The notes beneath the pieces are model-generated. The model did no database searches, was not told the origin of the DNA, and worked only from the letters and a program-made list of their open reading frames with translations. Made by a program: the position numbers and the translations under genes. Positions 205 to 50,728 of a stretch of DNA of 64,000 nt are shown here, in pieces; the stretch's first letter is position 1, and every line of letters begins with the position of its first letter. Origin of the DNA: Jingyaoa shaoxingensis (GTDB lineage: Bacteria > Bacillota > Clostridia > Lachnospirales > Lachnospiraceae); NCBI RefSeq assembly GCF_014385005.1, contig NZ_JACRSZ010000008.1:62001-126000 (forward strand), in the 5' to 3' direction.

Positions 205-1689
205 TTACATATGCTGCATAGCTAATTTCATCAGAGACTTCTGATTAAATTCATTTTTGGATAATTCCCCGCTCATTTTGTGGTTACTCAATACCAGGAT
301 TCTGTCTGACATACCCATGGCTTCCGGCAGTTCCGATGAAATCATAATAATTGCTTTGCCTTCTGCAACAAATTCATTCATCAGTTTATAGATCTCTGCC
401 TTGGCACCGACGTCAATACCTCTGGTCGGTTCATCAAAAATAATCACATCCGGATTTTTCAGCATCCATTTGGCAAGGACTACTTTCTGCTGGTTTCCGC
501 CGGAAAGATTCTTTACTGCCAGATTCGGACTGGTTGTTTTTACTTTCAGATCTGTAATCTCTTTTCCAACTCTATCCTTTTCTTCTTTCTGTTTTATAAA
601 AATCTTTCGGCTCAGCTCTTTCATCGAAGGTAATGTAATATTATGAGCAATGCTCATAGGAAGTACTAATCCCTCACCCTTCCGGTCTTCTGTCACATAG
701 GCAAGTCCGTTTTTAATTGCATCAACCGGTTTTTTGAATTCTACTTTCTGACCTTTCAGATAAACTTCCCCACTGTCCGGCTTTGTGATTCCAAACAATG
801 CCTGCATCGTTTCCGTTCTTCCTGCTCCTACCAGACCCACCAGGCCGAGAATTTCGCCTCTGCGAAGTTTGAAACTGATATTTTCAAATACACCTTCCTG
901 TGTAAAATTTTTTAATTCCAGAATGGTATCTCCGATTTCTACCTTTCTTTTTGGATACTGTTCTGTCAGTTCACGACCAACCATTGCCTTTACTACCATG
1001 TCATTGGTTGCTTCTTTTGTGTTCCAGGTTGCAATGCTTGCTCCGTCACGCAGAACCGTAATCTGATCGGTAATGGTATAGACTTCTTCCATTTTATGGG
1101 AAATATAAATGATACCTGTTTTTCTCATTTTCAGATCCCGGATAATGCCATACAGGTTTTCTACCTCTCTGTCAGTAATGGAGGATGTTGGTTCATCCAT
1201 TATCAGGATTCGTGCATTTTGTGATACTGCTTTCGCAATTTCCACAAGCTGCTGATCTGCCACTCTTAATTTTCCCATCTTGGTTTTCGGATTCAGGTTA
1301 ATGTTCAGATTCTTAAGAAGCTCTTCTGTGTCTTTATACATTTTCCTGTAATCAATAAATCCGTTTTTTACAGGCTCTCTTCCAAGATATATATTTTCTG
1401 CCACTGACATTTCTACAACGGAAGACAATTCCTGATGGATCATGGCAATTCCCAGTTTCTGGGCATCATGTGGAGATTCTATATTGACCTCCTGGCCATC
1501 AATCCTGATTGTTCCGCCATCACGTTTGTGGATTCCAACGAGTATGTTCATCATTGTCGATTTTCCTGCACCATTTTCTCCCATCAGTGCAAGAACGGTT
1601 CCGGCTTCCAGCGTCAGATCAACGGAATGAAGCACTTCATTTCCGTAGAAACTTTTGCGGATCCCGCGCATTTCCAGTAACACACTCAT
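205..1689 (-). CDS. Sugar ABC transporter ATP-binding protein, double domain (MglA/RbsA-like)
   Basis: This 494-residue protein is the cytoplasmic ATPase of a monosaccharide importer, of normal length for MglA/RbsA. It has two fused ATPase domains. The first has Walker [10 protein letters not shown] (37-45), a signature-like LRVADQQ (141-147), Walker B ILIMDEP (161-167) and a switch His in YISH (about 195-198). The second has the degenerate Walker A usual for the family (LVGAGRTE), LSGGNQQ (395-401) and DEPTRG (419-424). The ATG at 1689 follows an AGGAGGTG site. The permease starts 22 bases downstream. Upstream is a 340-base gap with its own promoter and then a kinase-regulator operon that ends in a dead copy of the same ATPase. 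The transporter is probably controlled by that regulator. The substrate cannot be fixed from sequence. Confidence 0.92.
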   Translation of the reverse strand: MSVLLEMRGIRKSFYGNEVLHSVDLTLEAGTVLALMGENGAGKSTMMNILVGIHKRDGGTIRIDGQEVNIESPHDAQKLGIAMIHQELSSVVEMSVAENIYLGREPVKNGFIDYRKMYKDTEELLKNLNINLNPKTKMGKLRVADQQLVEIAKAVSQNARILIMDEPTSSITDREVENLYGIIRDLKMRKTGIIYISHKMEEVYTITDQITVLRDGASIATWNTKEATNDMVVKAMVGRELTEQYPKRKVEIGDTILELKNFTQEGVFENISFKLRRGEILGLVGLVGAGRTETMQALFGITKPDSGEVYLKGQKVEFKKPVDAIKNGLAYVTEDRKGEGLVLPMSIAHNITLPSMKELSRKIFIKQKEEKDRVGKEITDLKVKTTSPNLAVKNLSGGNQQKVVLAKWMLKNPDVIIFDEPTRGIDVGAKAEIYKLMNEFVAEGKAIIMISSELPEAMGMSDRILVLSNHKMSGELSKNEFNQKSLMKLAMQHM

Positions 1690-1768: not shown

Positions 1769-1811
1769 ATTCTATCATGCGCCTGTTTTTTTCAAAAGGG
1801 GATTCCTTTTG
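1769..1811 (-). promoter_or_regulatory. Promoter and possible operator of the MglA-like transporter
   Basis: On the minus strand a -10 box TAGAAT (1769-1774) lies 15-17 bases from a TTTTGAAA -35 region. An inverted repeat CAAAAGG / CCTTTTG (1793-1799 and 1805-1811) overlaps and abuts the -35 box and could bind a regulator. The rest of the 1690-1968 gap is AT-rich, with no gene seen. Confidence 0.45.
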
Positions 1812-1967
1812 GACAGAGAGGGGGTATTTTTGGATTTTGTATAGTTATTATCTGTTTCGCCAATGTTTTTTGTCTATTTTTTCGTTCTTCCCGTATTGTA
1901 TATGGAATTATTGTTATATTTTTATCATTTTTATATGCTTATTTGTGCATTTTTGCTTCTGTAACTC

Positions 1968-2028: not shown

Positions 2029-3471
2029 TCAAGTCTCACTAAGCAAGTATTCAAATTCTTTTCTGTTTAAAATTCCGATATTTTTTCCATCTTTTACAAA
2101 AACAAGCCGGTCTGCCAGAAGAAGTACATTCTGATAATTCACTGTCACAATCACTACTGCAATTCCATGATCCAGCAATTCTTTCATCAATTGATAAATC
2201 AGTGTCCGCAATTTCAGATCTGTATTTAAAAACGGATGAATGCAGACGACGATATCAGGGTGTTGCAATAAAATACGTCCATATATCAATCGGTACTTCT
2301 GATAAATGGTCATGTTTTTCACTTCCGTGCCATTTTGAGGCATTTTTTCTCCCATTCGTTCTCTTGCAATTGCTTTTCTCGTCTCCTTACGATGCCACAG
2401 ACCTTTGAGCAGATGATCCGATGTAAGACACAGATTATCCTCATAACTCATATTTTTAAACAGCATATTCTCTGCCGGATTATCCAGAACCACAGCTATT
2501 TTTCTGGTATCTTTCTTTCTATACGGCTTTCCCCTGTATAAAAGCTGACCGGAATCTCCCCGTCCTTCAGTAAAAGCATATTCCAGATCATCATAGATCT
2601 GTTCCCCTCCATCATGGATGACCAGACATTCTCCCCTGCGAATGCTGAAAGATAACTCTTTTATTTTATTGTAGGAATAATCTTTGAATCGAAAGATCCT
2701 TTCCACATCAGGCGAATCTTCTACCTGCGCACTTCTTTTTATCATTCCCTGGTAAGACAGCATATAATTTCGCAATACCCGCTCTGTCAGGTTTCTTTTC
2801 TCCAGTATTTTCACAATCCTTCCGGTTTCCATAATGGCTGTTCTATCACACATTGCACATAATTCGTCCTGACGTGTACTTACATACAAAAATGTATTAC
2901 CTTTTCCTGCATAATACCGGACCACCTGATATAATCTGTCCATCTGATCCGGTGTGATTACAGAACTGGGATCTCTCAGAATAATCACATCTGCTCTGCT
3001 TACCACAGCTTTCAGTATTTCCAGTATATACCGTTCAAATACGGACATTTCTTCCAGTGATTTGTTGAACTGCACTCCTATTTTCAGTTCATCTGTCAGC
3101 ATCTGCATCTGACTTTTTATAATCCTGTTATTAATCCAGATCCCTTTATATCCTTTTCTCAAAATAAAAATATTTTCTTCCGGCGACAGATACTTTACCA
3201 GTATATTCTCATAAGATATCATCAGGACATTGTTCTCTGTTTCTGTTCCAATAGAAAAGGAATTTACCAGCTTCTCACGGATATAGATTTGACCATATAA
3301 TATAGGCAGATTCTTCTGCATCAGTTCCAGCATTTTATTCAGCCCAAAAGAATCCAGTGGCAAAAGCCCCATCACTTCACCCGCATAGATCTGCAGATTC
3401 AGATTATCCAATATGGTAATATCATTTTCTACATAAGTAACCCTCTGCATACGCAGCACTTCTTTTTTCAT
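2029..3471 (-). CDS. Catalytically dead MglA/RbsA-like ABC ATPase homologue
   Basis: This 480-residue protein aligns end to end with the active MglA-like ATPase next door, but every nucleotide motif is lost. The Walker A region (about 36-48) reads LLPLDSFGLNKML, with no GK[ST]. The signature position (141-147) is EMSVFER, Walker B is VIILRDPSS instead of MDEPTSS (162-170), and the switch His of YISH is Thr (YVST). In the second half LSGGNQQ is MTIYQKY (387-393) and the DEPTRG region is CIHPFLN (about 410-416). The frame is fully open, so selection has kept the fold without catalysis. ATG 3471 was chosen because it aligns with family starts; a GTG at 3507, three bases after the kinase stop, is also possible. 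It is the third gene of a regulator-kinase-dead ATPase operon. A role in signalling is inferred. Confidence 0.85.
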   Translation of the reverse strand: MKKEVLRMQRVTYVENDITILDNLNLQIYAGEVMGLLPLDSFGLNKMLELMQKNLPILYGQIYIREKLVNSFSIGTETENNVLMISYENILVKYLSPEENIFILRKGYKGIWINNRIIKSQMQMLTDELKIGVQFNKSLEEMSVFERYILEILKAVVSRADVIILRDPSSVITPDQMDRLYQVVRYYAGKGNTFLYVSTRQDELCAMCDRTAIMETGRIVKILEKRNLTERVLRNYMLSYQGMIKRSAQVEDSPDVERIFRFKDYSYNKIKELSFSIRRGECLVIHDGGEQIYDDLEYAFTEGRGDSGQLLYRGKPYRKKDTRKIAVVLDNPAENMLFKNMSYEDNLCLTSDHLLKGLWHRKETRKAIARERMGEKMPQNGTEVKNMTIYQKYRLIYGRILLQHPDIVVCIHPFLNTDLKLRTLIYQLMKELLDHGIAVVIVTVNYQNVLLLADRLVFVKDGKNIGILNRKEFEYLLSET

Positions 3472-3510
3472 GTACCATACCCTGTTTTTCAAGCGGAGTG
3501 CTGTCACGCC

Positions 3511-4554
3511 TCACACTTTATTAAAATCGACCTTTTTCAGTTCTCTCCGACTGGTTACAAGCGGCAGTTCAATCATTACATCGGTGCCCACTCCCGGTGT
3601 ACTGTATACTGTCATGCCATATTCTTCTCCAAAAATCAGATGAATACGGTTATTCACATTCACCAGCGCAATTCCACCTTTTTTCTTTTTGTTATGCAGG
3701 CTTTCAAACAGGGACTGATTCAGCTTGCGGTTCAGATCATCCAGTGCCTCTGGCTGCATTCCAATTCCGTCATCACTGACTTGAATAATCAGCCTCTTCT
3801 CTGTACATCTGAGAACAATCCGGACTGTACTAAAGCCCATTTTTCTTTCAATCCCATGAATAATACTGTTTTCCACCACCGGCTGAAGAGTCAGTTTTGG
3901 AAGCAGACAATGATTTAACAGATCATGCTCTTCTTCATCATATTCTATAGTGAGACCGATTCTTTCTTCAAACCGGTATTTCTGTATGAGGAAATAAGTA
4001 TTGATATTATCCAGTTCTTCCTCCAGTGTCACCATATTTTCCATGTTGCTGATGGTATACCGGAAAAAATGTGCCAGTGCCTCTGTCATGCAGACTACAC
4101 TTTCCATGCCCGCTTCCATTGCTTCACTTCGAATGCTCTCCAACGTATTATACAAAAAATGTGGATTAATCTGATTTTGAAGTGCCAGATACTGTGCCTG
4201 TCTTTTATTTTCATTCAGCATCTGTTCCGACTTCAGCAGCTGTATCAACTCTGAAAATATCCTGTCCACTTCTTTTGTCAATGCTATTTCACTGTCCTGA
4301 AGCCCATCTATGGTATATCCCTTCAGAAAAAGGGTCATATTATTCTCTATCTTCTTATATGGCAGTATCACCTGTCTGATAATCATCAGGCAGAGTATCA
4401 CCAGAAAGATTCCTATCACCAGAACCAATATCAGATCCATTCTGTTTCTGCGTTTGTCATACAGCAGCTTCAGCCAGAACATTCCACACAGAATCATTAA
4501 AAGTGATCCAAAAAATTTTACTCTGCTTATCAGATATTTCCAGTCTTCTCCCAT
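3511..4554 (-). CDS. LytS/YesM-type sensor histidine kinase with no extracellular sensor
   Basis: This 347-residue membrane kinase has two close helices (about 14-31 and 40-60) joined by a charged loop of roughly eight residues, so there is no room for a ligand-binding sensor domain; YesM-type kinases usually have 200 or more residues there. The catalytic part is intact: phospho-acceptor His132 in QINPHFLYNT, N-box QPVVENS with Asn229, and G-box SDDGIGM (Asp262, Gly263, Gly265). It starts nine bases after the response regulator gene (ATG 4554 behind AGGGG) and is followed after three to forty bases by the dead ATPase. The missing sensor suggests it reads the state of a partner protein, plausibly the dead ATPase or the transporter. 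That is an inference. Confidence 0.9.
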   Translation of the reverse strand: MGEDWKYLISRVKFFGSLLMILCGMFWLKLLYDKRRNRMDLILVLVIGIFLVILCLMIIRQVILPYKKIENNMTLFLKGYTIDGLQDSEIALTKEVDRIFSELIQLLKSEQMLNENKRQAQYLALQNQINPHFLYNTLESIRSEAMEAGMESVVCMTEALAHFFRYTISNMENMVTLEEELDNINTYFLIQKYRFEERIGLTIEYDEEEHDLLNHCLLPKLTLQPVVENSIIHGIERKMGFSTVRIVLRCTEKRLIIQVSDDGIGMQPEALDDLNRKLNQSLFESLHNKKKKGGIALVNVNNRIHLIFGEEYGMTVYSTPGVGTDVMIELPLVTSRRELKKVDFNKV

Positions 4555-4563
4555 GCTGTACCC

Positions 4564-6159
4564 CTAACCGTATAATTTTCTGTATTCTCCCGGCTTTAAC
4601 CCGGTATACTTGCGAAACATAGACGTAAAATGCTTTACATCACTGTAACCTACTTTTTCGCATACCTCTTTTACGGTGTCTTTCGTATCCTTCAACAGTT
4701 CCTTGGCTTTTTCCATCCTCAACTGTATCAGATAGTCTGCAAACCCTGCGCCTGTCTCTTTTTTAAAGAAACTGCTGAAATAACTGCTATTGAATCCCAC
4801 TTTATCTGCCACCAGTTCCAGTGTGATTGGCTCCATATAATGATTCTGCATATACTGTTTTGCGATACGAATTGGTTTGCGCTCTTCCTCCTCAAACTGC
4901 TGTTTCTTTTTCTGCAGAATCTGAACCAGTGTATTCTCCAGCACTCCAAATAACTGATCTGCCGAGCTGCAGTGCCCGCATTTTTTCCGGAACAGAATCA
5001 GCTGATCATGTGCCTCTTCGCTTTGCAGTGTATTCACTGCATGTGTACCGATCATCATAACTGCTTTTAACAGATCTTCACCTGTAATATTCTTTACTTT
5101 GAGAATGTCTGTTCCAAACTTTTCCACGCCTTCTGCAATAATCTTTTCATCACACAGATCGGAGGCCTTATCAAATATTCTGCAATATGGTTCCGTCAGT
5201 TCTCTGCAGTCAAACTGATTATTTACCGCCGGTGGATCCAGAAGCCGCTCACCGCCTTCCAGTAGTCTGTTATCCATGGCTCTCCTGCAGGAATCCAGAC
5301 TGTCATACAGTTTTTCCGTATTGTCTACATCAATTCCCATTGCCACTGAATATCTGGCATCCCACAGCCTGAACCTTTTTGCATTAATCTGATCTATAGC
5401 GTATCTTACCGACTTCCTGAAAATATGACTGTTTTCCTTTTCATAATTGCAGAGAATATAGCAATAACACTCTTCCTTATAGATCTCCATATCATTGCAG
5501 GTACTTTTCAGCTCTGCCTTTAGAATTTCTTCCAGTTCCAGCATAATAGAGCGTACTGACTGAATATCATGTTTCTCCGTATCATAATCCAGTTTTAGTA
5601 ATAATACCCGGAAGATTCCGTCTGAAAAATGATACAGATACTGTCTGTTCACTTCATCTCTGTCCGGTATTGGTCTGCGTGGCGATGCCAGAAGCAGATC
5701 ATAAAAAACGGCACATCTTTTTCGAATATTATCATCTTCCATATACTGCAAAAGCCTGTTGCTGGTATCAATCCGTTTCTTCTCCTGAATACATCTTGCT
5801 CCCAGTTTCTTTAAGGAAGCAGTCAGTTCATCCTGTTTAATAGGTTTCAGAAGATATTCACTTACGCCGTAATGAATGGCAGACTGTGCATATGCAAAAT
5901 CTGCATACCCGCTGATAATCAGAACCTCCATAGAAATTTTCTGTTCCCTTGCCTGCCGTATAATCTCTATTCCATCACATCCCGGCATGCAAATATCTGT
6001 GATCAATATATCCGGTTTTTCTTCATTCACCATCTTCAGTGCATCTATGCCATTATTTGCCACCCCCACAAGCTGCATATCCAGCTCATCCCAATTCACC
6101 AGCATTTGTATAAGACGGCATATCTTTTTCTCATCATCCGCAATCAGTACCTTCAGCAT
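4564..6159 (-). CDS. YesN-type response regulator with AraC DNA-binding domain
   Basis: This 531-residue regulator has an N-terminal receiver with acidic pair Asp8-Asp9, phospho-acceptor Asp55 in LITDICMPG and Lys105 in LLKPIK. A long middle region follows, then a C-terminal AraC/XylS-type double helix-turn-helix (about 430-531, ending near GLKPGEYRKLYG). ATG 6159 was chosen because a GGAGGGGG site precedes it and the protein then begins at the receiver strand MLKVLIADDE; the upstream ATG at 6219 lies inside the -10 box. It heads the operon and is expected to be phosphorylated by the next gene's kinase and to activate the MglA-like transporter downstream. Confidence 0.93.
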   Translation of the reverse strand: MLKVLIADDEKKICRLIQMLVNWDELDMQLVGVANNGIDALKMVNEEKPDILITDICMPGCDGIEIIRQAREQKISMEVLIISGYADFAYAQSAIHYGVSEYLLKPIKQDELTASLKKLGARCIQEKKRIDTSNRLLQYMEDDNIRKRCAVFYDLLLASPRRPIPDRDEVNRQYLYHFSDGIFRVLLLKLDYDTEKHDIQSVRSIMLELEEILKAELKSTCNDMEIYKEECYCYILCNYEKENSHIFRKSVRYAIDQINAKRFRLWDARYSVAMGIDVDNTEKLYDSLDSCRRAMDNRLLEGGERLLDPPAVNNQFDCRELTEPYCRIFDKASDLCDEKIIAEGVEKFGTDILKVKNITGEDLLKAVMMIGTHAVNTLQSEEAHDQLILFRKKCGHCSSADQLFGVLENTLVQILQKKKQQFEEEERKPIRIAKQYMQNHYMEPITLELVADKVGFNSSYFSSFFKKETGAGFADYLIQLRMEKAKELLKDTKDTVKEVCEKVGYSDVKHFTSMFRKYTGLKPGEYRKLYG

Positions 6160-6408: not shown

Positions 6409-6505
6409 TCCCGCAAGGTGAGAACCACGTCTGTATAACGCAAAAACACCGCCCCCGTAGCTCCTAAGTCTACAAAAGCAGTGCCTTCAGTGCGCGATCA
6501 GGGGT
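6409..6505 (-). repeat. Second copy of the tRNA-Lys 3' end plus downstream flank
   Basis: These 97 bases match 6621-6718 with three substitutions and one single-base gap. On the minus strand they contain the last 14 bases of the tRNA-Lys gene followed by the same downstream flank. The match ends abruptly inside the tRNA at 6505, so this copy holds only a tRNA tail. Confidence 0.85.
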
Positions 6506-6620
6506 GCGGTCGTCCAGTGGACGACTCTGCCGCAGGTAAAAGCACCGATCAGTTCACAAGATCCTGGGGATCTTGGTTTGAACCGGCCGAAGCGTAGCGT
6601 AGAACGACAGGCAAAATCGA
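6506..6620. other. Hairpin-rich non-coding spacer between the two repeat copies
   Basis: These 115 bases hold several short palindromes, for example CGTCCAGTGGACG (6511-6523) and an AAGATCC/GGATCTT pair (about 6559-6575). No open frame or RNA gene is recognised. Together with one repeat copy it forms a unit of 212 bases. Confidence 0.5.
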
Positions 6621-6718
6621 TCCCGCAAGGTGAGAACCCCGTCCATATAACGCAAAAAACACCGCCCCCGTAGCTCCTAAGTCTACAAAAGCAGTGCCTT
6701 CAGTGCGCGATCAGGGGT
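6621..6718 (-). repeat. First copy of the tRNA-Lys 3' end plus downstream flank
   Basis: These 98 bases belong to the intact tRNA-Lys: its last 14 bases and the sequence just downstream on the minus strand, including a GC-rich stretch followed by a run of T that may terminate the tRNA transcript. They are repeated at 6409-6505. Confidence 0.85.
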
Positions 6719-6776
6719 TCGAACCCTGGACACCCTGATTAAGAGTCAGGTGCTCTGCCAGCTGAGCTAATCGCGC
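6704..6776 (-). tRNA. tRNA-Lys (anticodon CTT)
   Basis: The minus strand folds into a full cloverleaf: acceptor GCGCGAT/ATCGCGC, D-arm GCTC/GAGC, anticodon stem CCTGA/TCAGG with loop CTCTTAA (anticodon CTT, Lys codon AAG), T-arm CAGGG/CCCTG with TTCGAAC, and discriminator A at 6704. CCA is not encoded. The last 14 bases recur at 6492-6505 as part of a duplicated flank. Confidence 0.95.
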
Positions 6777-11495: not shown

Positions 11496-11670
11496 GTAAG
11501 TTCCCCTCATCAAACCGTGCGTGAGTTTTTTTATCAGGGTTACTTTATCCACTCGCTTAGCCCCCTGTATTACTACAGCGCACCAAGTTTAACTACACGG
11601 CTCACTGGTGATTACCGTGACCGGACTTGCACCGTCAAGTGTGATCCAGCTTGCCGGACACACCACAGCG
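11496..11670 (-). mobile_element. Group II intron remnant (domain V/VI-like, no ORF)
   Basis: On the minus strand the sequence contains both halves of a group II intron domain V: GAGCCGTGT (near 11596-11604) and CTCACGCACGGTTTGATGAG (11507-11526). They are separated by about 70 bases where an intact domain V has a four-base loop. A domain I-like GACGGTGCAAGTCCGGTCA lies upstream (about 11617-11635). There is no reverse transcriptase frame, so it is a broken, inactive piece. It lies between two terminators, a setting favoured by class C introns. Confidence 0.5.
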
Positions 11671-26046: not shown

Positions 26047-27222
26047 TTATTCACTTCTCTTCTTAGATACTACGTCGAAGATAACGGCTGCCAGAAGTAC
26101 CAGACCTTTTACTACTTTCTGCATATTCTGGTCAGTTCCCATGATAGACATACCCTGGTTGATGATACCCATCAGTGTTGCACCGATGATAACTCCAGGT
26201 ACTGTACCGGTTCCACCGTAAGCAGATGCACCACCGATGAAGCAGGATCCGATGGCATCCATTTCGTAGTTCTGACCATATGTAGGCTGCGCACTGGTCA
26301 GACGTGCGATGGTCAGCATACCTGCCAGAGCAGACAGAAGACCCATGTTAGTGTAAGCCAGGAAGTAAACTCTTTCGGTATTGATACCGGAAAGTTTCGT
26401 TGCTTTTTCGTTACCACCTACTGCGTAGAAGTAACGTCCAATCGTTGTCTTACTTGTGATGTAGCCGTAGATCAATACTACGATCAGCACCCATACCAAT
26501 GAAGTCGGGATACCTTTGTATTTTGCCAGCTTATAAGTAATAAACAGGATGACTGCACATATCAGGATCATTTTAATATACATTGCAGCAACATTACCCG
26601 TTTCATAACCTTTTTTCTTACGGTTCAGATAACCTTTCATTGTTACCACTACGAAGATTACACATGCAACAACACCAACTACCAGAGCAAGACGGTTCAT
26701 TCCTTCTCCTCCGCCCAGAATATCCGGCACGTAACAGTTTGCGCCACCACCGAACAGAACAACGAATGCCTGATTCTTAATTGGAAGTGTCTGACCGCCA
26801 AGAACTACGTTTGATAAACCACGGAATACAAACATACCGGACAGTGTGGTAATGAATGGAGGTACATGTACGTATGCGATCCATACAGCCTGCCATGCAC
26901 CGATGACTGCACCAAGTAATAACATCAAAATCACTGCAATCGGCATTGGCATACCCATTTTTTCCATGAAGACGCCGCCTACAGCACCCACAAAACATAC
27001 AACGGATCCAACAGAAAGATCGATGTTACCTCCTGTTAAGATACAGAGCAGCATACCGGTTGCCAGTACGTATACATATGCGTTCTGTGAAATCAGGTTT
27101 GTGATGTTCTGAGGAAACAGGATCTTACCCTGTGTACCCCAGGTAAAAAACAGTGTTACCAAAACTAACACGATGATCATTGAATATTTTTGTATTCCTT
27201 CTCTTAACTTTGCCTTATCCAT
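26047..27222 (-). CDS. mmsB: Multiple-monosaccharide ABC transporter permease
   Basis: This 391-residue permease has about ten membrane helices. TGGNIDLSVGSVV (near 62-75), FITTLSGMFVFRGL and the AIGSCFIGGASAYGGTGTVPGV signature are typical of the GguB/MmsB and XylH branch. It works with the ATPase four bases upstream and the ChvE-type binding protein. ATG 27222 follows AAGGAGAG. It is last in the operon. The expected substrates are hexoses or pentoses such as glucose, galactose, xylose or arabinose. Confidence 0.93.
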   Translation of the reverse strand: MDKAKLREGIQKYSMIIVLVLVTLFFTWGTQGKILFPQNITNLISQNAYVYVLATGMLLCILTGGNIDLSVGSVVCFVGAVGGVFMEKMGMPMPIAVILMLLLGAVIGAWQAVWIAYVHVPPFITTLSGMFVFRGLSNVVLGGQTLPIKNQAFVVLFGGGANCYVPDILGGGEGMNRLALVVGVVACVIFVVVTMKGYLNRKKKGYETGNVAAMYIKMILICAVILFITYKLAKYKGIPTSLVWVLIVVLIYGYITSKTTIGRYFYAVGGNEKATKLSGINTERVYFLAYTNMGLLSALAGMLTIARLTSAQPTYGQNYEMDAIGSCFIGGASAYGGTGTVPGVIIGATLMGIINQGMSIMGTDQNMQKVVKGLVLLAAVIFDVVSKKRSE

Positions 27223-27225
27223 CGT

Positions 27226-28764
27226 TTACTCTCCTTTACTAGAACTCAGTATACAGGACATGATCTTCTCCTGAGAAGCTTCTTCCTGTGACAGCTCCCC
27301 AACGATTCGTCCTTCATTCATGACATAAATTCTGTCTGACATACCAAGGACTTCCGGAAGTTCTGAGGAAATCATGATAACAGATTTTCCTGCCGCAACC
27401 AGATCGTTGATGATGCAGTAAATTTCATATTTTGCACCTACGTCAATACCACGGGTAGGTTCATCCAGAATCAGTACATCCGGATCTGCAAACATCCATT
27501 TTGCCAGAAGCACCTTCTGCTGATTACCACCACTTAAGTTACCAACATTCTGCTCTACGGTAGGACATTTTGTTTTCAGCTTTTCTTTGTACTCTACTGC
27601 AACTGCATATTCTTTGTCTTTATCAATGACAATACCATTGCTTACGCCTGCCATATTGGCAAGTGTGGTATTGGTTTTGATCGGATTGCTGAGGATCAGG
27701 CCATCACCTTTACGGTCCTCGGTAACGTATGCCAGTTTATGTGCAATGGCATCTCTGGAAGACTTCAGATGTACTTCTTTTCCATTCAGGAGAAGCGTTC
27801 CGCTGATATTGCTTCCGTAGCTGCGTCCGAATACACTCTTGGCCAGCTCAGTACGACCGGCACCCATCAGTCCGGAGATACCAACTACTTCGCCTTTATG
27901 CACCTTGATGGATACGTTATCTACTACTTTTCGTTCTGTATAGATTGGATGGTATACGGTCCAGTTCTTAACTTCCATGCTGACATCACTGATCTGCACT
28001 CCGTGACGCTTCGGGAAACGGTCTGCGATTTCACGACCAACCATACCTTTAATAATACGGTCTTCTGAAAAATCATCCACGCCCTTTGTCAGAGTCTCGA
28101 TAGTAGAACCATCTCGAATAACTGTAATCTTGTCTGCTACATAAGATACTTCATTCAGCTTATGTGAGATAATAATACAGGTCATTCCGTCTTTTTTAAA
28201 TTTCAGAAGCAGATCCAGAAGTGCCTTGGAATCTGATTCGTTCAATGAAGATGTCGGCTCATCCAGAATCAGCAGTTTTGCATTTTTAGCCAATGCTTTT
28301 GCGATCTCAACCAGCTGCTGTTTACCGGTACCGATATCTTTAATTAATGTTCTGGAAGACTCGGATAATCCGACTTCCTTCATATATTTTTCTGCCTGAC
28401 CATATGTCTCATCCCAGTCAATGGCAGCTTTCTTTCCACGTTCATTTCCGAGGAACATGTTTTCACCAATGGACATATATGGCACAAGTGCCAGTTCCTG
28501 ATGAATAATTACAATTCCCTTTTCTTCACTCTGTTTAATATCATGGAATTTACATACTTCCCCGTTATAGATAATATCTCCCTCGTAGGATCCATATGGA
28601 TACACACCGGAGAGTACATTCATCAATGTAGATTTACCAGCTCCATTTTCACCAACCAGAGCATGGATTTCCCCCTCTTCTACCTGAAGATTTACGTTAT
28701 CGAGGGCCTTTACACCGGGGAAAGTTTTGGTGATATTTTTCATTTCCAACAGTATCTTAGCCAA
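27226..28764 (-). CDS. mmsA: Multiple-monosaccharide ABC transporter ATP-binding protein
   Basis: This 512-residue double-domain ATPase has Walker [10 protein letters not shown] (38-46), Walker [11 protein letters not shown] (first half), [14 protein letters not shown] and [12 protein letters not shown] (second half). It belongs to the GguA/MmsA/XylG branch. The start is TTG 28764 behind AGGAGGG. It lies 120 bases after the binding-protein gene, with a hairpin between them, and four bases before the permease. Confidence 0.94.
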
Positions 28765-28827
28765 AATTTGTTCCCTCCTAAAAATATAATTCTGTCTGTA
28801 AAACCAGAAGCTCCTCTTTCAGAATAA

Positions 28828-28852
28828 ACAGGCGGGCTGTTTACCCGCCTGT
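28828..28852 (-). terminator. Intercistronic hairpin between chvE and mmsA
   Basis: ACAGGCGGG / CCCGCCTGT (28828-28836 and 28844-28852) is followed by TTTATT on the minus strand. A partial terminator or an RNA-stabilising stem here would give more binding protein than membrane complex, a common arrangement. Confidence 0.7.
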
Positions 28853-28884
28853 ATGAAAATCATTCCGTCATTTACTGACTCTTC

Positions 28885-29934
28885 TTACTGGATCTGATCC
28901 TCTGTGTAGTATCCGGAATCGATCAGCATTTCTTTGTAGTTATCAATTGTTACAGCAACTGGCTCGCAAAGGTAAGATGGGATGATACCTGTTCCGTTGT
29001 CGTATGTTTCTGTATCGTTTACAGGAACTTCTTCGCCGGAGATGATTGCATCTACCATTTCAACTACCTGAGAAGCAAGTGCACGTGTATCTTTGAATAC
29101 GGACATAGCCTGTTTGCCAGCTACGATGTTAGCTACGTTAGCGATATCGCAGTCCTGACCGGTGATGATTGGATATTCACCTGTGTAGTTAGCTGCCAGA
29201 GCGTTTTCTACACCAAGTGCTGTAGAGTCATTAGAAGCAAGTACTGCATCCAGGTTTGTTCCATCTGCATAGTTGGAAGACAGAATGTTTTCGAATCTGG
29301 ACTGTGCAGCGTCTGTTGCCCAGTTTGCTGTAGCAACTTCTTCTTTTGCAATCTGTCCGGAAGGAACTACCAGTTTACCCGCATCAATGTATGGCTGAAG
29401 AACATCCATAGCACCGCCATAGAAGAAGTTTACGTTGTTGTCACCTGGGTCACCAGTGATGATTTCCAGATTGAATGGTCCATCAGCGTTTTCCAGATCC
29501 AGAGCATCTACCAGGTATTCACCCTGTGTCTTACCTACTAAGTAGTTATCGAATGTTGCATAGTAGGAAATAGCATCTGTATTCATGATCAGACGGTCAT
29601 ATGCGATTACAGGAATGTTAGCTTCTTTTGCCTGTGCAAGTACTGTTCCAAGGGAATCACCATCGATAGAAGCAACTACAAGGAGCTGGTCTCCGTTAGC
29701 GATCATATTTTCAATCTGAGAAGCCTGTGTAGCGGAATCATTTCCAGCGTACTGAAGGTCTACTTCGTAGCCTTTTGCTTCCAGTTCTGCTTTCATGTTA
29801 GAACCATCCTGATTCCATCTCTGAAGATCCTGTGTAGGCATTGCAACACCGATCTTTTCGCCTTCTGCATTTGCCATTGTTCCCATAGCAGCTACAGCAA
29901 GCATAGCAGTTAAAACAACTAATCTCTTTTTCAT
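28885..29934 (-). CDS. chvE: Multiple-monosaccharide-binding protein, ChvE-like, without lipobox
   Basis: This 349-residue sugar-binding protein belongs to the ChvE/XylF-related periplasmic-binding family. The mature part begins EKIGVAMPTQDLQRWNQDG, with YDRLIMNTDAISYYATFDN and GQDCDIANVANIVAGKQ lining the sugar cleft. The signal peptide (1-23) ends in ANA and has no cysteine, so the lipid anchor usual in Gram-positive importers is absent. ATG 29934 follows GGGAGG. It is first in the chvE-mmsA-mmsB operon. Likely ligands are glucose, galactose, xylose or arabinose. Confidence 0.93.
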   Translation of the reverse strand: MKKRLVVLTAMLAVAAMGTMANAEGEKIGVAMPTQDLQRWNQDGSNMKAELEAKGYEVDLQYAGNDSATQASQIENMIANGDQLLVVASIDGDSLGTVLAQAKEANIPVIAYDRLIMNTDAISYYATFDNYLVGKTQGEYLVDALDLENADGPFNLEIITGDPGDNNVNFFYGGAMDVLQPYIDAGKLVVPSGQIAKEEVATANWATDAAQSRFENILSSNYADGTNLDAVLASNDSTALGVENALAANYTGEYPIITGQDCDIANVANIVAGKQAMSVFKDTRALASQVVEMVDAIISGEEVPVNDTETYDNGTGIIPSYLCEPVAVTIDNYKEMLIDSGYYTEDQIQ

Positions 29935-40090: not shown

Positions 40091-41602
40091 TTATTCGTAT
40101 TTATCGCATCTTTTTTGGAACTCTTTTGGCGTCATACCTGTACATCGTTTAAATAACTGACTGAAATAACGTCCATCATGATACCCTAACTTCACTGCTA
40201 CTTCGTATACACGTGCATCTGGTTCATTCAACATATTCTTTGCTTTATCCATCTTAATATCCGTGACTATATCTGAAAAAGTTTTCCCACATTCTTTCAC
40301 GAATAATTCACTCAAATATGTAGCATTAATATTATATTTCTTTGCATAATCTTTCAAAAGTTTTACTTCTGAATAATTATCACGAATATCTTTTTGGATA
40401 TTGTAAATAACAGGATGTAGTATTTTCTTCTCCATTTTTTCCATTTTTTCTGTAAGCTTTTTTAATGTTTCGGTTGTTCTTACAGCAATTTCCATTTCAG
40501 AAAATTCCCGTTTTATTTTTGGAAATGAATCATAAAATTCTTTAAAGAGCAGTTGTTTCTCGCCTTTTTCTTCATTCATGGCTATATAAAGATAATACGA
40601 AAGTCGAATCATAAGATTTTGTCTTTCCTGAATGCTGTTTGTTTTATTGAAATATAACACCAGTTTTTCAGCAACTTGATCAAATTTTTTGTCTTTCCAT
40701 AATGCATAAATTATTCTTTCCTCTTCAAGTTTTGCATCTTTCATCTGTATGATCATATGTTGATTTGTTCTGTCATTTTCCATGCACTGTTCCACTTCCA
40801 GATATTTGGAATATAAATCTCTTCCATCGAAAAATCCTGTCTCAATATGAGCAATAGGAAGGAATAAATTATTTTCCAGCACATCCACCATTTCTTCACA
40901 TAATTTTTTTATCTGATATTCTATTTGTTGTGTCTGCATTGTAGAATGAAAATATTCTGTATAAAAAATCAGATAGAACATGTTATATGATTCACTGATC
41001 AGGCAATACTGAATTTTCTGCTGCTTCACTTCCAACAATTCTTCTATGATATTTTTTACTGCGTACAAAATAAGACCTGAATCAGATGGCGTAAACCCTC
41101 CTATTTTCTGATATTCCTGGATCCTACATCCAGATAAAATGACCTGTTTTTTCCAAAATAAAGATTCTGACGAAATCAACCCATGAAGCATATCGGAAAT
41201 TTGTATCTGTAATTTATTATCACGATCCATATTTTTGACTTTAACCATTTCTATCAATTCACAAACCGTTTCCTGTACTGATTTTATTGTAATGGGTTTA
41301 ATTAAAAAATCATGTACCTGATACTGAAGTGCAGTTCTGGCATATTCAAAATCTGCATAAGCGGTAACTATGACAATTATCGTATCCTGAGACAATTCCC
41401 GTATCTGGCGAGTCATTTCTAATCCATCGCATACAGGCATTCGAATATCTGTTAAAACAATTTCTGGTTTATATTTTTTAAAAAGTTCTAACCCCTCTTC
41501 TCCATGACAAGCTGTAAATACTTCCAGTGGAAACATTTTCTGTATCTGTTTGGCCACACTTTCTCGGATTAGTCGTTCATCTTCTACATATAATAATCTC
41601 AT
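40091..41602 (-). CDS. YesN-type response regulator with AraC domain
   Basis: This 503-residue regulator has a receiver domain with the acidic pair in YVEDERL, phospho-acceptor Asp in IVLTDIRMPV (near 52) and Lys in LIKPIT. A helical linker follows, then an AraC double helix-turn-helix (about 400-503, ending PKEFQKRCDKYE). Its ATG overlaps the kinase stop by four bases (ATGA), so the pair is translationally coupled. It is expected to activate its own operon through the direct repeats at 43379-43410. Confidence 0.93.
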   Translation of the reverse strand: MRLLYVEDERLIRESVAKQIQKMFPLEVFTACHGEEGLELFKKYKPEIVLTDIRMPVCDGLEMTRQIRELSQDTIIVIVTAYADFEYARTALQYQVHDFLIKPITIKSVQETVCELIEMVKVKNMDRDNKLQIQISDMLHGLISSESLFWKKQVILSGCRIQEYQKIGGFTPSDSGLILYAVKNIIEELLEVKQQKIQYCLISESYNMFYLIFYTEYFHSTMQTQQIEYQIKKLCEEMVDVLENNLFLPIAHIETGFFDGRDLYSKYLEVEQCMENDRTNQHMIIQMKDAKLEEERIIYALWKDKKFDQVAEKLVLYFNKTNSIQERQNLMIRLSYYLYIAMNEEKGEKQLLFKEFYDSFPKIKREFSEMEIAVRTTETLKKLTEKMEKMEKKILHPVIYNIQKDIRDNYSEVKLLKDYAKKYNINATYLSELFVKECGKTFSDIVTDIKMDKAKNMLNEPDARVYEVAVKLGYHDGRYFSQLFKRCTGMTPKEFQKRCDKYE

Positions 41603-43296
41603 GTCTCTTTCCTGCCTTTCGCCTCTGTTTTTATATTAATTACCAACATAAACATATGATTTTCATAATGTACCTGTAGCTCCGCATTACTGCCATACAT
41701 TAATTTTAATCTTCGGTAAACATTATATAGTCCTATTCCTAATGATTTCACTTCGGTTTCATTCGGTCGATAATCTTCTGTAAATTTTCTTTTCAAATTT
41801 TCCAATTCTATTGGTTTTAATTCTGCATAATTATTACTAAAACAAAAGGATATGATTCCATTTTCTTTTTTAGCTGTAAGTTTAATTTCTACTGTTTCCA
41901 TATGAAATTCCACACTATGCTTAATCGCATTTTCAACAATGGGTTGAAATGTTAGTTTGGGAATTTCCAGAGACTGTAATTCCTTTGGAACATCTGCGAA
42001 ATAGCAAAATCGATCTTCATATCTCTTGGACTGTAATAACAAATATTGCTCTACATGCTCTAATTCCTGTCCTACTGTAGATGGTGCATCAATTTCATAT
42101 AAGCCATACCGCAAAAGATTTGACAGTGCATCCACCATTTCACATGCCTCTATAGCTCTTTCTTCATCTAAAATCATCCAATAGATAGAATTTAGTGTAT
42201 TATATAAAAAATGGGGATTTAACTGTGATAGAAGAAAACGCATTTCCAATTTTCGATTCTGTTCTTTTTCAATAGAAAGCTCTGTTAACATCCTAGAAAA
42301 CTGTACACTCAAAGCATTGATTTCTTCCACCTGACTGTGTGGAAGCTGAATGCAAAAATCTCCCTGCTCAATTTGTTTCATAACTCCAGTTAATTCTAAC
42401 GTTGGACGCTTGATCCACTTTATCCATATACTGCTGCAAAACAAACTGAGCAGCATGACAGGACTCATACAAATCAATACAATAATGATACTCTTACAGG
42501 ATTCCTCAAGCAAATAGGAACGCGCATAATGCCCCACGACTTTCAGATTATTGTTAATTAATGATTCTTCTGTAAAATATCCTTCTCTTTCTGATAACTG
42601 AAACTTCTTTTTTTCCTGTTCTCTTAACAAAAGAGGAATATTTTTATTATCACAAACATAATACTGCATAACCGCTTTTTCATTTTGACTTATCGTTTCA
42701 ATCCATTTAGTGTTAACAACCAGAAATTGATAACCTATAATTTTTCGACTACTTGACGCATATATTGTTCTACCAAATACACTATACGGTTTTTCAATTC
42801 CTTTTATAATCAGTCCATTTTCTTCTGGCAAAAGTGTAAACCCACTTTCAAGTTTGGAAATTTGCTTAAACCACTTCTTCTCCCTGAGTTCATAGCAGTT
42901 CTGAATTCCAACAATATCATTTTGAATATGATATGGTTCTCCAATTAAAGGATAAATAATCATATCGCTAATGGCTGGATGACTTGTGCTCAAAGATTCC
43001 AACAGCTGATGCGTACAATATTTTTCATAAACTGAAGATTCCTGAGCATTATCTCTTTGTAATGCCTGTTGTACTGAAATATTCAAATAAGAATTATCCG
43101 CAATGGTATATATACTATTTAAATCCTTTCCGAGTAATTCAGCCACTTGGTTAGTGTTTGCTTTTAGCATTTCTGAAATACTGTCTCTTTTTGAATAAAA
43201 ACTGGTAATTCCTATAATACAAGATGAAATCAACAATATTACGCATTGTGCAATAACAATAAAAGTGATCCATGATAAATTCACTTTTGCTTTCAT
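41599..43296 (-). CDS. LytS/YesM-type sensor kinase with altered G1 box
   Basis: This 565-residue kinase has a membrane helix (about 9-33), an extracellular region of about 235 residues, a second helix (about 268-292), a HAMP-like linker, His362 in QLNPHFLYNT, and N-box QPIVENAIKHS with Asn456. The G1 box, normally DxGxG, reads SNNYA (about 487-491), so the adenine-binding Asp and glycines are missing; G2 SLGIGL is kept (518-523). Activity may be reduced or use another geometry. ATG 43296 lies behind GGAAGG; an ATG at 43305 is too close to it. It is first in the operon. Confidence 0.88.
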   Translation of the reverse strand: MKAKVNLSWITFIVIAQCVILLISSCIIGITSFYSKRDSISEMLKANTNQVAELLGKDLNSIYTIADNSYLNISVQQALQRDNAQESSVYEKYCTHQLLESLSTSHPAISDMIIYPLIGEPYHIQNDIVGIQNCYELREKKWFKQISKLESGFTLLPEENGLIIKGIEKPYSVFGRTIYASSSRKIIGYQFLVVNTKWIETISQNEKAVMQYYVCDNKNIPLLLREQEKKKFQLSEREGYFTEESLINNNLKVVGHYARSYLLEESCKSIIIVLICMSPVMLLSLFCSSIWIKWIKRPTLELTGVMKQIEQGDFCIQLPHSQVEEINALSVQFSRMLTELSIEKEQNRKLEMRFLLSQLNPHFLYNTLNSIYWMILDEERAIEACEMVDALSNLLRYGLYEIDAPSTVGQELEHVEQYLLLQSKRYEDRFCYFADVPKELQSLEIPKLTFQPIVENAIKHSVEFHMETVEIKLTAKKENGIISFCFSNNYAELKPIELENLKRKFTEDYRPNETEVKSLGIGLYNVYRRLKLMYGSNAELQVHYENHMFMLVINIKTEAKGRKET

Positions 43297-43378
43297 AAAA
43301 CACATCCTTCCTATAAACCATTTTCACTCTATTTAATATATACCATATCAAGAGCTAGCACAAAATATAATGCATTTC

Positions 43379-49675: not shown

Positions 49676-50728
49676 ATGGAAAAGAAGAAAAAAACAAATT
49701 ATCTCACGGTTATTGCCGGACTGGTTCTGATCTCACTGGTCTGTCTGGTTCTGTATATTGTAAGAGAATACTATGCCATCTCTTCTCTTCAGAAGCAGTA
49801 TACACAGACTACAGAAGCCTCCGGATACAAGTATCACTGCGCCTTTATCACCAACTCCGTGACTGCTTTCTGGGACTCAACTTTTGAAGCTGCCAGAGAA
49901 GAGGGCATTCCGGAAAATATTTACGTGGAGGATTTTGGAAAAAACCTGGATCTCTCCTATACAACCAATGAACTGTTGAAGATGGCCACTGCTGCCAGAG
50001 TTGATGCCATTATTATGGAAGCAAACGATGACTATTCCACCACCCAGCTTATGAACAAAGCAGTGGATGCCGGAATTGCCGTCAGTACCATTTACCGGGA
50101 TAACATGAACAGTGAACGTTACAGCTACACCGGCGTCAATAACGTCACCATTGGTTACGATTATGGATCACTTGCCCTGAAGTATGCCGATGCCAGTGAC
50201 TCCAATGTCATGGTCATTCTGGATTCCCAGGAACAAGACACGGAAAGTCGTCTTCTGGTCTCCGGTATCGGCAAAGCACTGGAGGAACAGCGCAGTGATA
50301 TGAAACTGGATACTATGAAGCTGAATAACTCCAATACTTTTGAAGTAGAAGAATCTATCCGTAAATATTTGAAAAATCATCTCAACGAGACTGATATCGT
50401 AATCTGCACCACGCTGCAGCAAACTCAGTCCATCAGCCAGATTGCGGTAGATATGAACTATGTGGGAGATTTTAAGATCATTGGTTCCTACCAAAATGAC
50501 TCTGTACTGGAATACCTCTCCAGCGGTGTTATCAGTGCCAATATCGTCATTGATGCGGCACAGATGGGAAAACGTGCTGTTGATAACCTTGCCGAATACT
50601 TGGAATATGGTTACACCAGCGACTATTCCCAGGTGGATGTGCACACTCTGGAGAAGGAAGATGCCATTCGTCTGTTAAATGCCAGACAGGCAGAAGCTGA
50701 ATCAGAAACAGGAAAGGAGGCTGAATAA
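49676..50728 (+). CDS. Membrane-anchored sugar-binding sensor (XylFII-like)
   Basis: This 350-residue periplasmic-binding-fold protein (Peripla_BP_4 type) is tethered by an uncleaved N-terminal helix (about 10-29). The fold begins at YHCAFITNSVTAFWDSTFEAA and includes DAIIMEANDD and GSYQNDSVLEYL. It matches the arrangement of the clostridial XylFII co-sensor, which binds D-xylose and docks to a LytS-type kinase. The kinase ATG overlaps its TAA stop by one base (TAATG). It lies 17 bases after the ROK gene. Xylose as ligand is inferred from context. Confidence 0.82.
   Translation: MEKKKKTNYLTVIAGLVLISLVCLVLYIVREYYAISSLQKQYTQTTEASGYKYHCAFITNSVTAFWDSTFEAAREEGIPENIYVEDFGKNLDLSYTTNELLKMATAARVDAIIMEANDDYSTTQLMNKAVDAGIAVSTIYRDNMNSERYSYTGVNNVTIGYDYGSLALKYADASDSNVMVILDSQEQDTESRLLVSGIGKALEEQRSDMKLDTMKLNNSNTFEVEESIRKYLKNHLNETDIVICTTLQQTQSISQIAVDMNYVGDFKIIGSYQNDSVLEYLSSGVISANIVIDAAQMGKRAVDNLAEYLEYGYTSDYSQVDVHTLEKEDAIRLLNARQAEAESETGKEAE

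What the first reader, a model, noticed from the sequence alone, without database searches (positions are those of the whole stretch)
2029..6159. Two-component operon with a sensorless kinase and a dead ABC ATPase
The operon order is response regulator, kinase and an RbsA/MglA-like protein that has lost Walker A, both signature motifs, Walker B and the switch His, while the reading frame is fully kept. The kinase has two close membrane helices and no extracellular sensor. Just downstream are the active MglA-like ATPase and its permease. The sequence facts are direct. The inference is that the dead ATPase joins the permease or kinase and turns transport state into a signal, a design reminiscent of intramembrane-sensing kinases that depend on ABC transporters. 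I know of no described system with a catalytically dead sugar-ABC ATPase as a dedicated kinase partner.
Basis: partly seen in the sequence, partly recalled or inferred. Interest (0 to 1): 0.85.

Follow-up and report, generated by a model that had tools for sequence, protein, structure and literature searches.

The report
Kinase partnered with dead transporter ATPase
Some gut bacteria pair a signalling kinase that has no outside sensor with a sugar-transporter motor protein that has lost its engine, which suggests a so far undescribed way for a cell to read what its sugar transporter is doing and switch that transporter's genes.

Summary
Window 2029-6159 (minus strand) encodes an AraC-type response regulator, a YesM/LytS-type kinase with only a two-helix membrane hairpin, and an open RbsA/MglA-like protein that keeps none of nine catalytic positions. 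An intact CUT2 sugar ATPase and the start of its permease follow. The dead protein belongs to a family under purifying selection; the kinase lies directly upstream in 71 of 71 loci. The pattern is wider: in six genomes 29 of 29 high-scoring sensorless kinases have a degenerate ATPase-like gene in the operon (27 directly 3'), against 0 of 20 sampled YesM kinases with an extracellular domain. In Oribacterium-type proteins the kinase is fused to one dead ATP-binding domain. Four such kinases have no membrane helix. A direct repeat at the transporter promoter (17 of 54 loci, 0.5 expected) links regulator to transporter. Best reading: the pseudo-ATPase is the kinase's dedicated input subunit and reports the state of a CUT2 sugar transporter. 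Binding partners and signal are untested. Nine searches of an open-access library listed no description.

The parts
4564..6159 (-). Response regulator, receiver plus AraC-type HTH (YesN-like), 531 aa
   Evidence: Open frame; PF00072, PF12833, PF00165
3511..4554 (-). Sensorless YesM/LytS-type histidine kinase, 347 aa: membrane hairpin (helices 8-36 and 41-77), then PF06580 and HATPase_c
   Evidence: belongs to a kinase group whose members mostly lack the extracellular domain
2029..3471 (-). Pseudo-ATPase: CUT2/RbsA-like double NBD with 0 of 9 catalytic positions kept, 480 aa; probable ATG at 3471, upstream GTG at 3507
   Evidence: both halves model as ABC NBDs
1798..1826 (-). Direct-repeat element TACCCC - 17 nt - ATCCCC, probable regulator-binding site of the transporter operon
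   Evidence: Paired element upstream of the ATPase gene in 17 of 54 loci against a shuffled mean of 0.52
1769..1797 (-). Candidate promoter: TTTTGA (1797-1792), 17 nt, TAGAAT (1774-1769), abutting the direct repeat
   Evidence: Read by eye from the sequence; similar layout by eye in other loci
205..1689 (-). Intact CUT2 sugar ATPase (RbsA/MglA/XylG-like), 494 aa
1..182 (-). N-terminal part of the CUT2 permease, cut by the window edge
   Evidence: Sequence; a permease follows the ATPase in related loci (cluster c3, PF02653 for its representative)

Best explanation
The operon encodes a three-protein sensing device. The pseudo-ATPase is a non-catalytic double NBD that acts as the input subunit of the sensorless kinase. 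It most likely docks, as ordinary CUT2 ATPases do, on the coupling surface of a CUT2 permease and also contacts the kinase dimer. The kinase is then switched when the transporter's state changes, for example when loaded binding protein and the true ATPase engage the permease and displace or reshape the pseudo-ATPase. The phosphorylated AraC-type regulator binds the direct repeat next to the promoter of the transporter operon and raises transport. Shown here: strict gene linkage, loss of catalytic residues with purifying selection, kept ABC fold (model), natural kinase::dead-NBD fusion, kinases with no membrane helix, and the shared promoter element. Inferred: physical binding, the permease as docking partner, the direction of signalling, regulator binding, and the sugar.
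For: (1) Linkage: kinase directly upstream (within 285 nt) of the family's pseudo-ATPase in 71 of 71 loci and beside it in 31 of 31 further loci, 9 of which repeat genomes of the first set. Stop and start overlap by 4 nt in 32 of 71. (3) Fusion: a 616-aa kinase with a short membrane hairpin and a C-terminal dead NBD (98.7 bits to the family profile); 237 relatives of that domain in the protein database, the 120 listed being 509-619-aa proteins with both kinase domains, one labelled Oribacterium parvum. (4) Four kinases have no TM helix (L155, L169, L229, L231), so their input must reach them from the cytosol. (5) The Asn of the segment after the Q-loop is kept in 72 of 72 NBD1 and 71 of 72 NBD2 of the family while catalytic residues are scrambled. 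(6) Five loci have a permease gene directly after the pseudo-ATPase gene. (7) dN/dS 0.04-0.16 in the 15 of 17 close pairs with a measurable dS. (8) Direct repeat at the transporter promoter, 17 of 54.
Against: No interaction, phosphorylation or expression was measured. The kept Asn may be structural; several fold glycines are kept as well. In the window clade the same trio goes with a different CUT2 ATPase (45-48% to the other family ATPases listed), so a tight fit to one permease is not obvious. 9 of 55 distant members keep an NBD1 Walker A and may bind ATP. One kinase with a true extracellular domain also has an ATPase-like gene 3' (L160). In a second kinase tree the long kinases are not one clean group (4 changes). 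37 of 54 loci lack the strict paired element. In some loci no intact CUT2 ATPase was seen in the stretch fetched (L166, L167, L169). The relative placement of the two NBDs in the model is uncertain (pTM 0.56).
Confidence: 0.6

Rival explanations
1. The pseudo-ATPase is a cytosolic ligand sensor: its old nucleotide site, or a new pocket, binds a sugar phosphate or nucleotide and sets the kinase, with no contact to the permease.
For: Kinases without any TM helix keep the partner. 9 of 55 distant members keep GxxxxGK[ST] (for instance GLSGAGKTL, GNNGAGKST) and could still bind ATP without hydrolysis. No contact to a permease is proved.
Against: In the window family the site is scrambled differently in different members (Walker A Lys in 21 of 72, never with more than 4 of 9 positions in all), which does not look like one conserved pocket. 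A CUT2 transporter lies beside most trios. A permease gene directly follows the pseudo-ATPase in five loci.
Confidence: 0.2
2. The pseudo-ATPase only scaffolds or stabilises the kinase; the real signal enters through the kinase membrane hairpin, as in Bce-type intramembrane sensing.
For: The window kinase has a hairpin of the intramembrane-sensing kind, and Bce kinases depend on an ABC transporter (PMC10314905, PMC8534201; passages seen).
Against: Four kinases of the group have no TM helix and six score one, yet the pseudo-ATPase stays in these loci.
Confidence: 0.1
3. The pseudo-ATPase is a brake on transport: it competes with the true ATPase for the permease, and its place beside the kinase only serves co-expression.
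For: It keeps the NBD fold and the segment after the Q-loop and mostly sits near a transporter.
Against: It is tied to the kinase type: 0 of 20 sampled sensor-bearing kinases, some of them also next to CUT2 genes, have one directly 3', and a form fused to the kinase exists.
Confidence: 0.07
4. A decaying duplicate ATPase gene without function.
For: Catalytic motifs are lost; two copies of 71 are split or truncated (L068, L070) and one kinase is split (L086).
Against: dN far below dS in the 15 pairs with a measurable dS, full-length frames and kept synteny across Bacillota and two spirochaete loci, fold kept in the model.
Confidence: 0.02

Closest known systems
BceAB-BceRS (intramembrane-sensing kinase controlled by an ABC transporter; PMC10314905, passages seen)
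   Same: A kinase without a sensor domain and with two TM helices, a partner from the ABC transporter world, and feedback on the transporter genes.
   Different: Bce needs a working ATPase and a BceB permease with a large outer domain. Here the partner is a catalytically dead CUT2-type double NBD, permeases in related loci are PF02653, the kinase is PF06580-type, some kinases lack TM helices, and a kinase::NBD fusion exists.
XylFII-LytS-YesN and CuaD-CuaS-CuaR three-component sugar systems (CuaDSR: PMC10384115, passages seen; XylFII recalled and as cited there)
   Same: Kinase and regulator beside a sugar ABC transporter, with a third protein derived from a transporter part.
   Different: There the third protein is an extracellular solute-binding protein that binds an extracellular kinase domain. 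Here it is a cytosolic-type NBD protein and the kinase has no such domain.
CUT2 sugar ATPases RbsA/MglA/XylG/AraG
   Same: Full-length double-NBD homology (NCBIfam E about 1e-39) and fold.
   Different: Catalytic motifs gone; best score 135.6 bits against a cut-off of 772.
UhpC-UhpB, MalK-MalT, SUR1 (transporter relatives turned signalling partners; recalled, not looked up)
   Same: A transporter component or relative serves as regulator.
   Different: As far as I recall, none is a dead sugar-ABC ATPase dedicated to a histidine kinase.

Membership tests
CUT2 (RbsA/MglA) ATPase, catalytic | Two tandem ABC NBD folds in about 500 aa | tested here: met
CUT2 (RbsA/MglA) ATPase, catalytic | Walker A Lys/Ser, Q, Walker B Asp-Glu and His in NBD1, LSGG in NBD2 | tested here: not met
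   Window 0 of 9 positions; 73 family rows and 31 further rows 0-4 of 9; 55 CUT2 ATPases of the same loci intact
YesM/LytS-type histidine kinases (PF06580) | His_kinase plus HATPase_c domains with intact boxes | tested here: met
YesM/LytS-type histidine kinases (PF06580) | Extracellular domain between two TM helices, as in the full-length YesM kinases sampled | tested here: not met
   4-residue turn in the model; in the 20 sampled full-length kinases 155-277 residues lie between the predicted TM segments
Intramembrane-sensing kinases (BceS-like) | Two TM helices with a very short outer loop | tested here: met
   Met for the window; in the wider group 40 of 55 kinases score two TM segments, 3 score three, 6 one and 6 none (two of the six with none, L159 and L235, were set aside)
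Bce-type sensing module | Active ATPase with a BceB-type permease bearing a large outer domain | tested here: not met
   Partner ATPase dead; permeases tested in related loci are PF02653; the window's own permease is cut off
Bce-type sensing module | Physical complex of kinase and transporter | not testable with these tools
   No complex prediction or binding assay available
XylFII/CuaD-type three-component sugar systems | Extra solute-binding protein bound to an extracellular kinase domain | tested here: not met
   Kinase has no such domain; the third gene is an NBD protein

The most novel reading that the evidence does not exclude
Pseudo-ATPases derived from sugar ABC transporters are a general class of kinase input subunits in Lachnospiraceae and other Bacillota. 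The group of sensorless YesM-type kinases has traded its extracellular sensor for a dead NBD that plugs the kinase into CUT2 permeases. The cell thus senses the transporter's conformational cycle or occupancy instead of the sugar, up to the point where kinase and NBD fuse and the kinase needs no membrane anchor of its own.
Probability: 0.45. Interest if true: 0.9.

Novelty: new variant of a known kind. Interest (0 to 1): 0.8.

Why it matters
If true, it adds a signalling architecture to two-component biology: a dead transporter motor as a kinase's sensor. It would explain how a large group of kinases without any outside domain hears about sugars, and it would make 'a transporter doubles as the sensor' testable in gut commensals, some of which carry several such cassettes per genome. 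It would also give proteins that look like sugar ABC ATPases by name a different job.

Tried and rejected
Pseudogene: rejected by dN/dS and synteny. An intact ATPase in the third position: sought in 55 third-position proteins outside the family; none keeps more than 5 of 9 catalytic positions, though 9 keep GxxxxGK[ST]. A new invariant Pro at the first Walker A position in the 71-locus set (72 of 72 rows with a letter there): rejected as a finding, because the pattern with which one search scanned requires that Pro; the pattern-free genome survey has C, S, L, A, T, G or F there in several rows. For the same reason the loss of the first Walker A residues in the 71-locus set is partly built in; the census does not have this bias. 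A conserved N-terminal LSxR motif in the kinase as a docking element: clear in the window family but a loose pattern for it was found in only 12 of 56 kinases (one of the 56, L133, is of the window family), so not general. L162 was first counted as a sensor-bearing exception; it proved to be a kinase::NBD fusion. L159's kinase N-terminus reads like a piece of another gene at a contig edge, so its TM count was ignored; L230 scores one TM but may have two. Three family matches flagged with one inner TAA (G005, G009 C4, G150) were checked against the frames: the TAA is the gene's own stop. The scan of genome contigs with the single dead-ATPase protein found nothing; the alignment did. Sequence searches of solved structures listed no CUT2-type ATPase at the cut-offs used (best 60 shown in the second). 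Foldseek against the PDB listed ABC proteins of other kinds (best 50). Whether the distant third-position proteins share one origin with the window family was not tested by a tree. No own genome is held, so the window's binding protein and full permease could not be read. Motif positions come from MAFFT alignments; the Walker A of a few distant members could be misaligned by a residue. ATPase-like frames under 33% identity or under 480 aa, or under about 485 aa or 38-40% identity, were left out of the sets of intact neighbours. The 20 full-length kinases were picked by hand from the listing.
Full report
WHAT IS THERE. On the minus strand the window reads: response regulator (6159-4564), kinase (4554-3511), dead ATPase (3471-2029), a 339-bp gap, intact CUT2 ATPase (1689-205), permease (182 to the edge). 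The regulator is a receiver with an AraC-type DNA-binding domain and the kinase is PF06580 plus HATPase_c, with its conserved boxes intact. The third protein matches CUT2 ATPase models over its full length, best D-allose AlsA at 135.6 bits against a cut-off of 772; its intact neighbour scores 600 bits on its best model, xylose (cut-off 699).

THE TRIO IS A UNIT. In all 71 loci the kinase gene lies directly upstream of the pseudo-ATPase gene on the same strand, at most 285 nt away. A regulator frame precedes the kinase within 110 nt in 69 of 71 (in L068 and L070 it is in pieces); L001 starts inside the kinase and in L057 the nearest regulator found is 2 kb away. Kinase stop and pseudo-ATPase start overlap by 4 nt in 32 of 71. 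The 31 loci of the genome survey all have the kinase beside it; 9 of them repeat genomes of the first set. The survey found the family in 23 of 397 genomes of the GTDB family of G001 (a genome titled Bacterium 0.1xD8-71; the family's name is not told), 7 of 398 of its phylum and 1 of 149 of a spirochaete's phylum, the centre genome being counted each time. Titles include Hespellia, Anaerocolumna, Butyrivibrio, Blautia schinkii, Mobilisporobacter, Natronincola, Anaerovirgula and Pleomorphochaeta. Two copies of the 71 are damaged (L068 split, L070 truncated), and in L086 the kinase is split.

IT IS NOT ONE FAMILY BUT A PATTERN. Searching the kinase profile in the same 397 genomes, without any use of the ATPase, gave 62 genomes with a match at E up to 1e-75 (at most five candidates scored per genome), more than have the pseudo-ATPase family. 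In six of these genomes the matches fall into two sets: the 29 at 253 bits or more have frames of 267-399 aa; below 235 bits all but two of those listed (317 and 342 aa) have 460-695 aa. I fetched neighbourhoods in three rounds by falling score and a hand-picked control of 20 long kinases from the same six genomes. Outside the window family 56 sensorless kinases were examined (L134-L152: 19; L153-L172 without L160: 19; L218-L235: 18). Fifty have a CUT2-like ATPase gene directly 3', one is fused to it (L162), two have a 238/251-aa single NBD upstream of the regulator (L222, L223), two have one elsewhere in the locus (L167, L169) and one has none (L235, 150 bits). Of the 20 long kinases none has one directly 3' (Fisher p = 2e-13, which does not allow for relatedness). 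L160 is a real exception: a kinase with an extracellular domain followed by a half-degenerate ATPase. In the six genomes all 29 high-scoring sensorless kinases have a degenerate NBD gene in the operon: 27 directly 3' (5 of the window family; 8; 14) and 2 upstream of the regulator. The 55 third-position proteins outside the family keep 0-5 of 9 catalytic positions; 9 of them keep GxxxxGK[ST] in NBD1, so the series runs from probably nucleotide-binding to fully scrambled. Of 39 CUT2-like neighbours in that alignment 37 keep 9 of 9; the other two are a row cut by the fetched stretch and a 282-aa protein of another kind; 16 more were read as intact. In a kinase-domain tree 70 of 71 sensorless kinases lie on one side of a branch (support 0.88) with only L160 and the fusion L162 of the long ones (the branch was chosen after the event). 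The split is not clean: the largest split with no long kinase at all holds 15 of 71, and in a second tree the label 'long' needs 4 changes where 1 would be a clean split.

A NATURAL FUSION. L162 is a 616-aa kinase with TM segments at 38-56 and 66-84. After the kinase domain, residues 401-614 match NBD1 of the pseudo-ATPase profile (98.7 bits for the C-terminal piece, 95.1 in the whole protein), with Walker A and B gone; Pfam sees no ABC domain there. The protein database holds 237 relatives of this domain at E up to 1e-5. The 120 listed are proteins of 509-619 aa with both kinase domains, one labelled Oribacterium parvum (three read in full). A fusion of kinase and dead NBD is strong evidence that the two act together. 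A kinase dimer with one NBD per chain would also give the two NBDs that the separate protein carries in one chain (inference).

KINASES WITHOUT MEMBRANE HELICES. By a hydropathy scan of 55 sensorless kinases, 40 score two TM segments, 3 three, 6 one and 6 none before the H-box; two of the six with none were set aside (L159 edge artefact, L235 outside the group), leaving L155, L169, L229 and L231. A pseudo-ATPase gene stays in these four loci (directly 3' in three; elsewhere in L169). So the input need not pass through kinase TM helices, unlike in Bce systems.

LINK TO THE TRANSPORTER. The segment after the Q-loop, which I recall as lining the cleft for the permease coupling helix, keeps its Asn in 72 of 72 NBD1 and 71 of 72 NBD2 of the family, in 44 of 55 and 52 of 52 of the others, and in 55 of 55 intact ATPases; this could be structural, as fold glycines are kept too. 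Five loci (L154, L156, L165, L229, L233) have a permease gene directly after the pseudo-ATPase gene; in all but L229 another permease with a CUT2 ATPase lies nearby (PF02653 for the two tested). A direct repeat [AT][ACT]CCC[CT] with 16-20 nt between the units lies upstream of the CUT2 ATPase gene in 17 of 54 loci (shuffled mean 0.52, maximum 3; random pieces of the same loci mean 0.84, maximum 3), by eye just before a -10-like box. I wrote the pattern after looking at 17 of these upstream regions, 6 of which match; the other 11 hits are among 37 regions not looked at before, though L062 and L069 are close kin. In the window it is at 1826-1798 and abuts TTTTGA-17-TAGAAT (read by eye). It occurs whether the transporter lies before or after the trio. 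Most family loci share one transporter lineage, but the window clade (six rows) has another: the window ATPase is 78-84% identical within the clade, 45-48% to the other family ATPases listed, and 51% to those of four loci outside the family. The trio can therefore change transporter.

MECHANISM. I think the pseudo-ATPase plugs the kinase into a CUT2 permease and reports whether the true ATPase and loaded binding protein are engaging it; the regulator then tunes the transporter genes. Linkage, fusion, modelled fold, selection and promoter element are shown. Binding, docking site and signal direction are inferred. Neighbour genes differ between clades (Dak1, Dak2 and an SDR in the window clade; lyxose isomerase, ROK, SIS, mannose-6-phosphate isomerase and DUF4432 families elsewhere; representatives tested), so the sugar probably differs.

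PRINT. Nine searches of the open library listed no paper on such a partner; subscription papers are not held. I saw passages of PMC10314905, PMC8534201, PMC10384115 and PMC7828314, none in full. UhpC, MalK-MalT and SUR1 are recalled.

Noticed in passing
window 6409-6721: A 67-nt direct repeat (copies 6442-6508 and 6655-6721, 99%) includes the 3' end of a tRNA-Lys gene (6703-6776, minus): a tandem duplication or a leftover attachment-site pair of a small element.
   Followed up: partly
window 11526-11638 (minus): Match to the group II intron D1-D4 Rfam family just above its cut-off (50.2 against 49 bits).
   Followed up: no
L024 5315-7141 and 19 other loci: About 608-aa binding protein; the representative has two Peripla_BP_4 domains in a row, encoded beside the CUT2 permease upstream of the trio.
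   Followed up: partly
L222 6684-7400, L223 6699-7454: Single 238/251-aa degenerate NBD upstream of the regulator, instead of a double NBD after the kinase.
   Followed up: partly
L160 7882-11139: Kinase of the same group with a real extracellular domain followed by an ATPase with intact Walker A but lost LSGG and catalytic Glu: a possible evolutionary intermediate.
   Followed up: partly
window 26047-29934; 40091-43305; 50728-53815: A second CUT2-type set (binding protein, 512-aa ATPase, permease) and two further kinase/regulator pairs with kinases of 568 and 499 aa in the same window.
   Followed up: no
L236 3449-7504 and the Blautia schinkii genome (G009): This genome holds two copies of the window-family cassette (519 and 494 bits).
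   Followed up: partly
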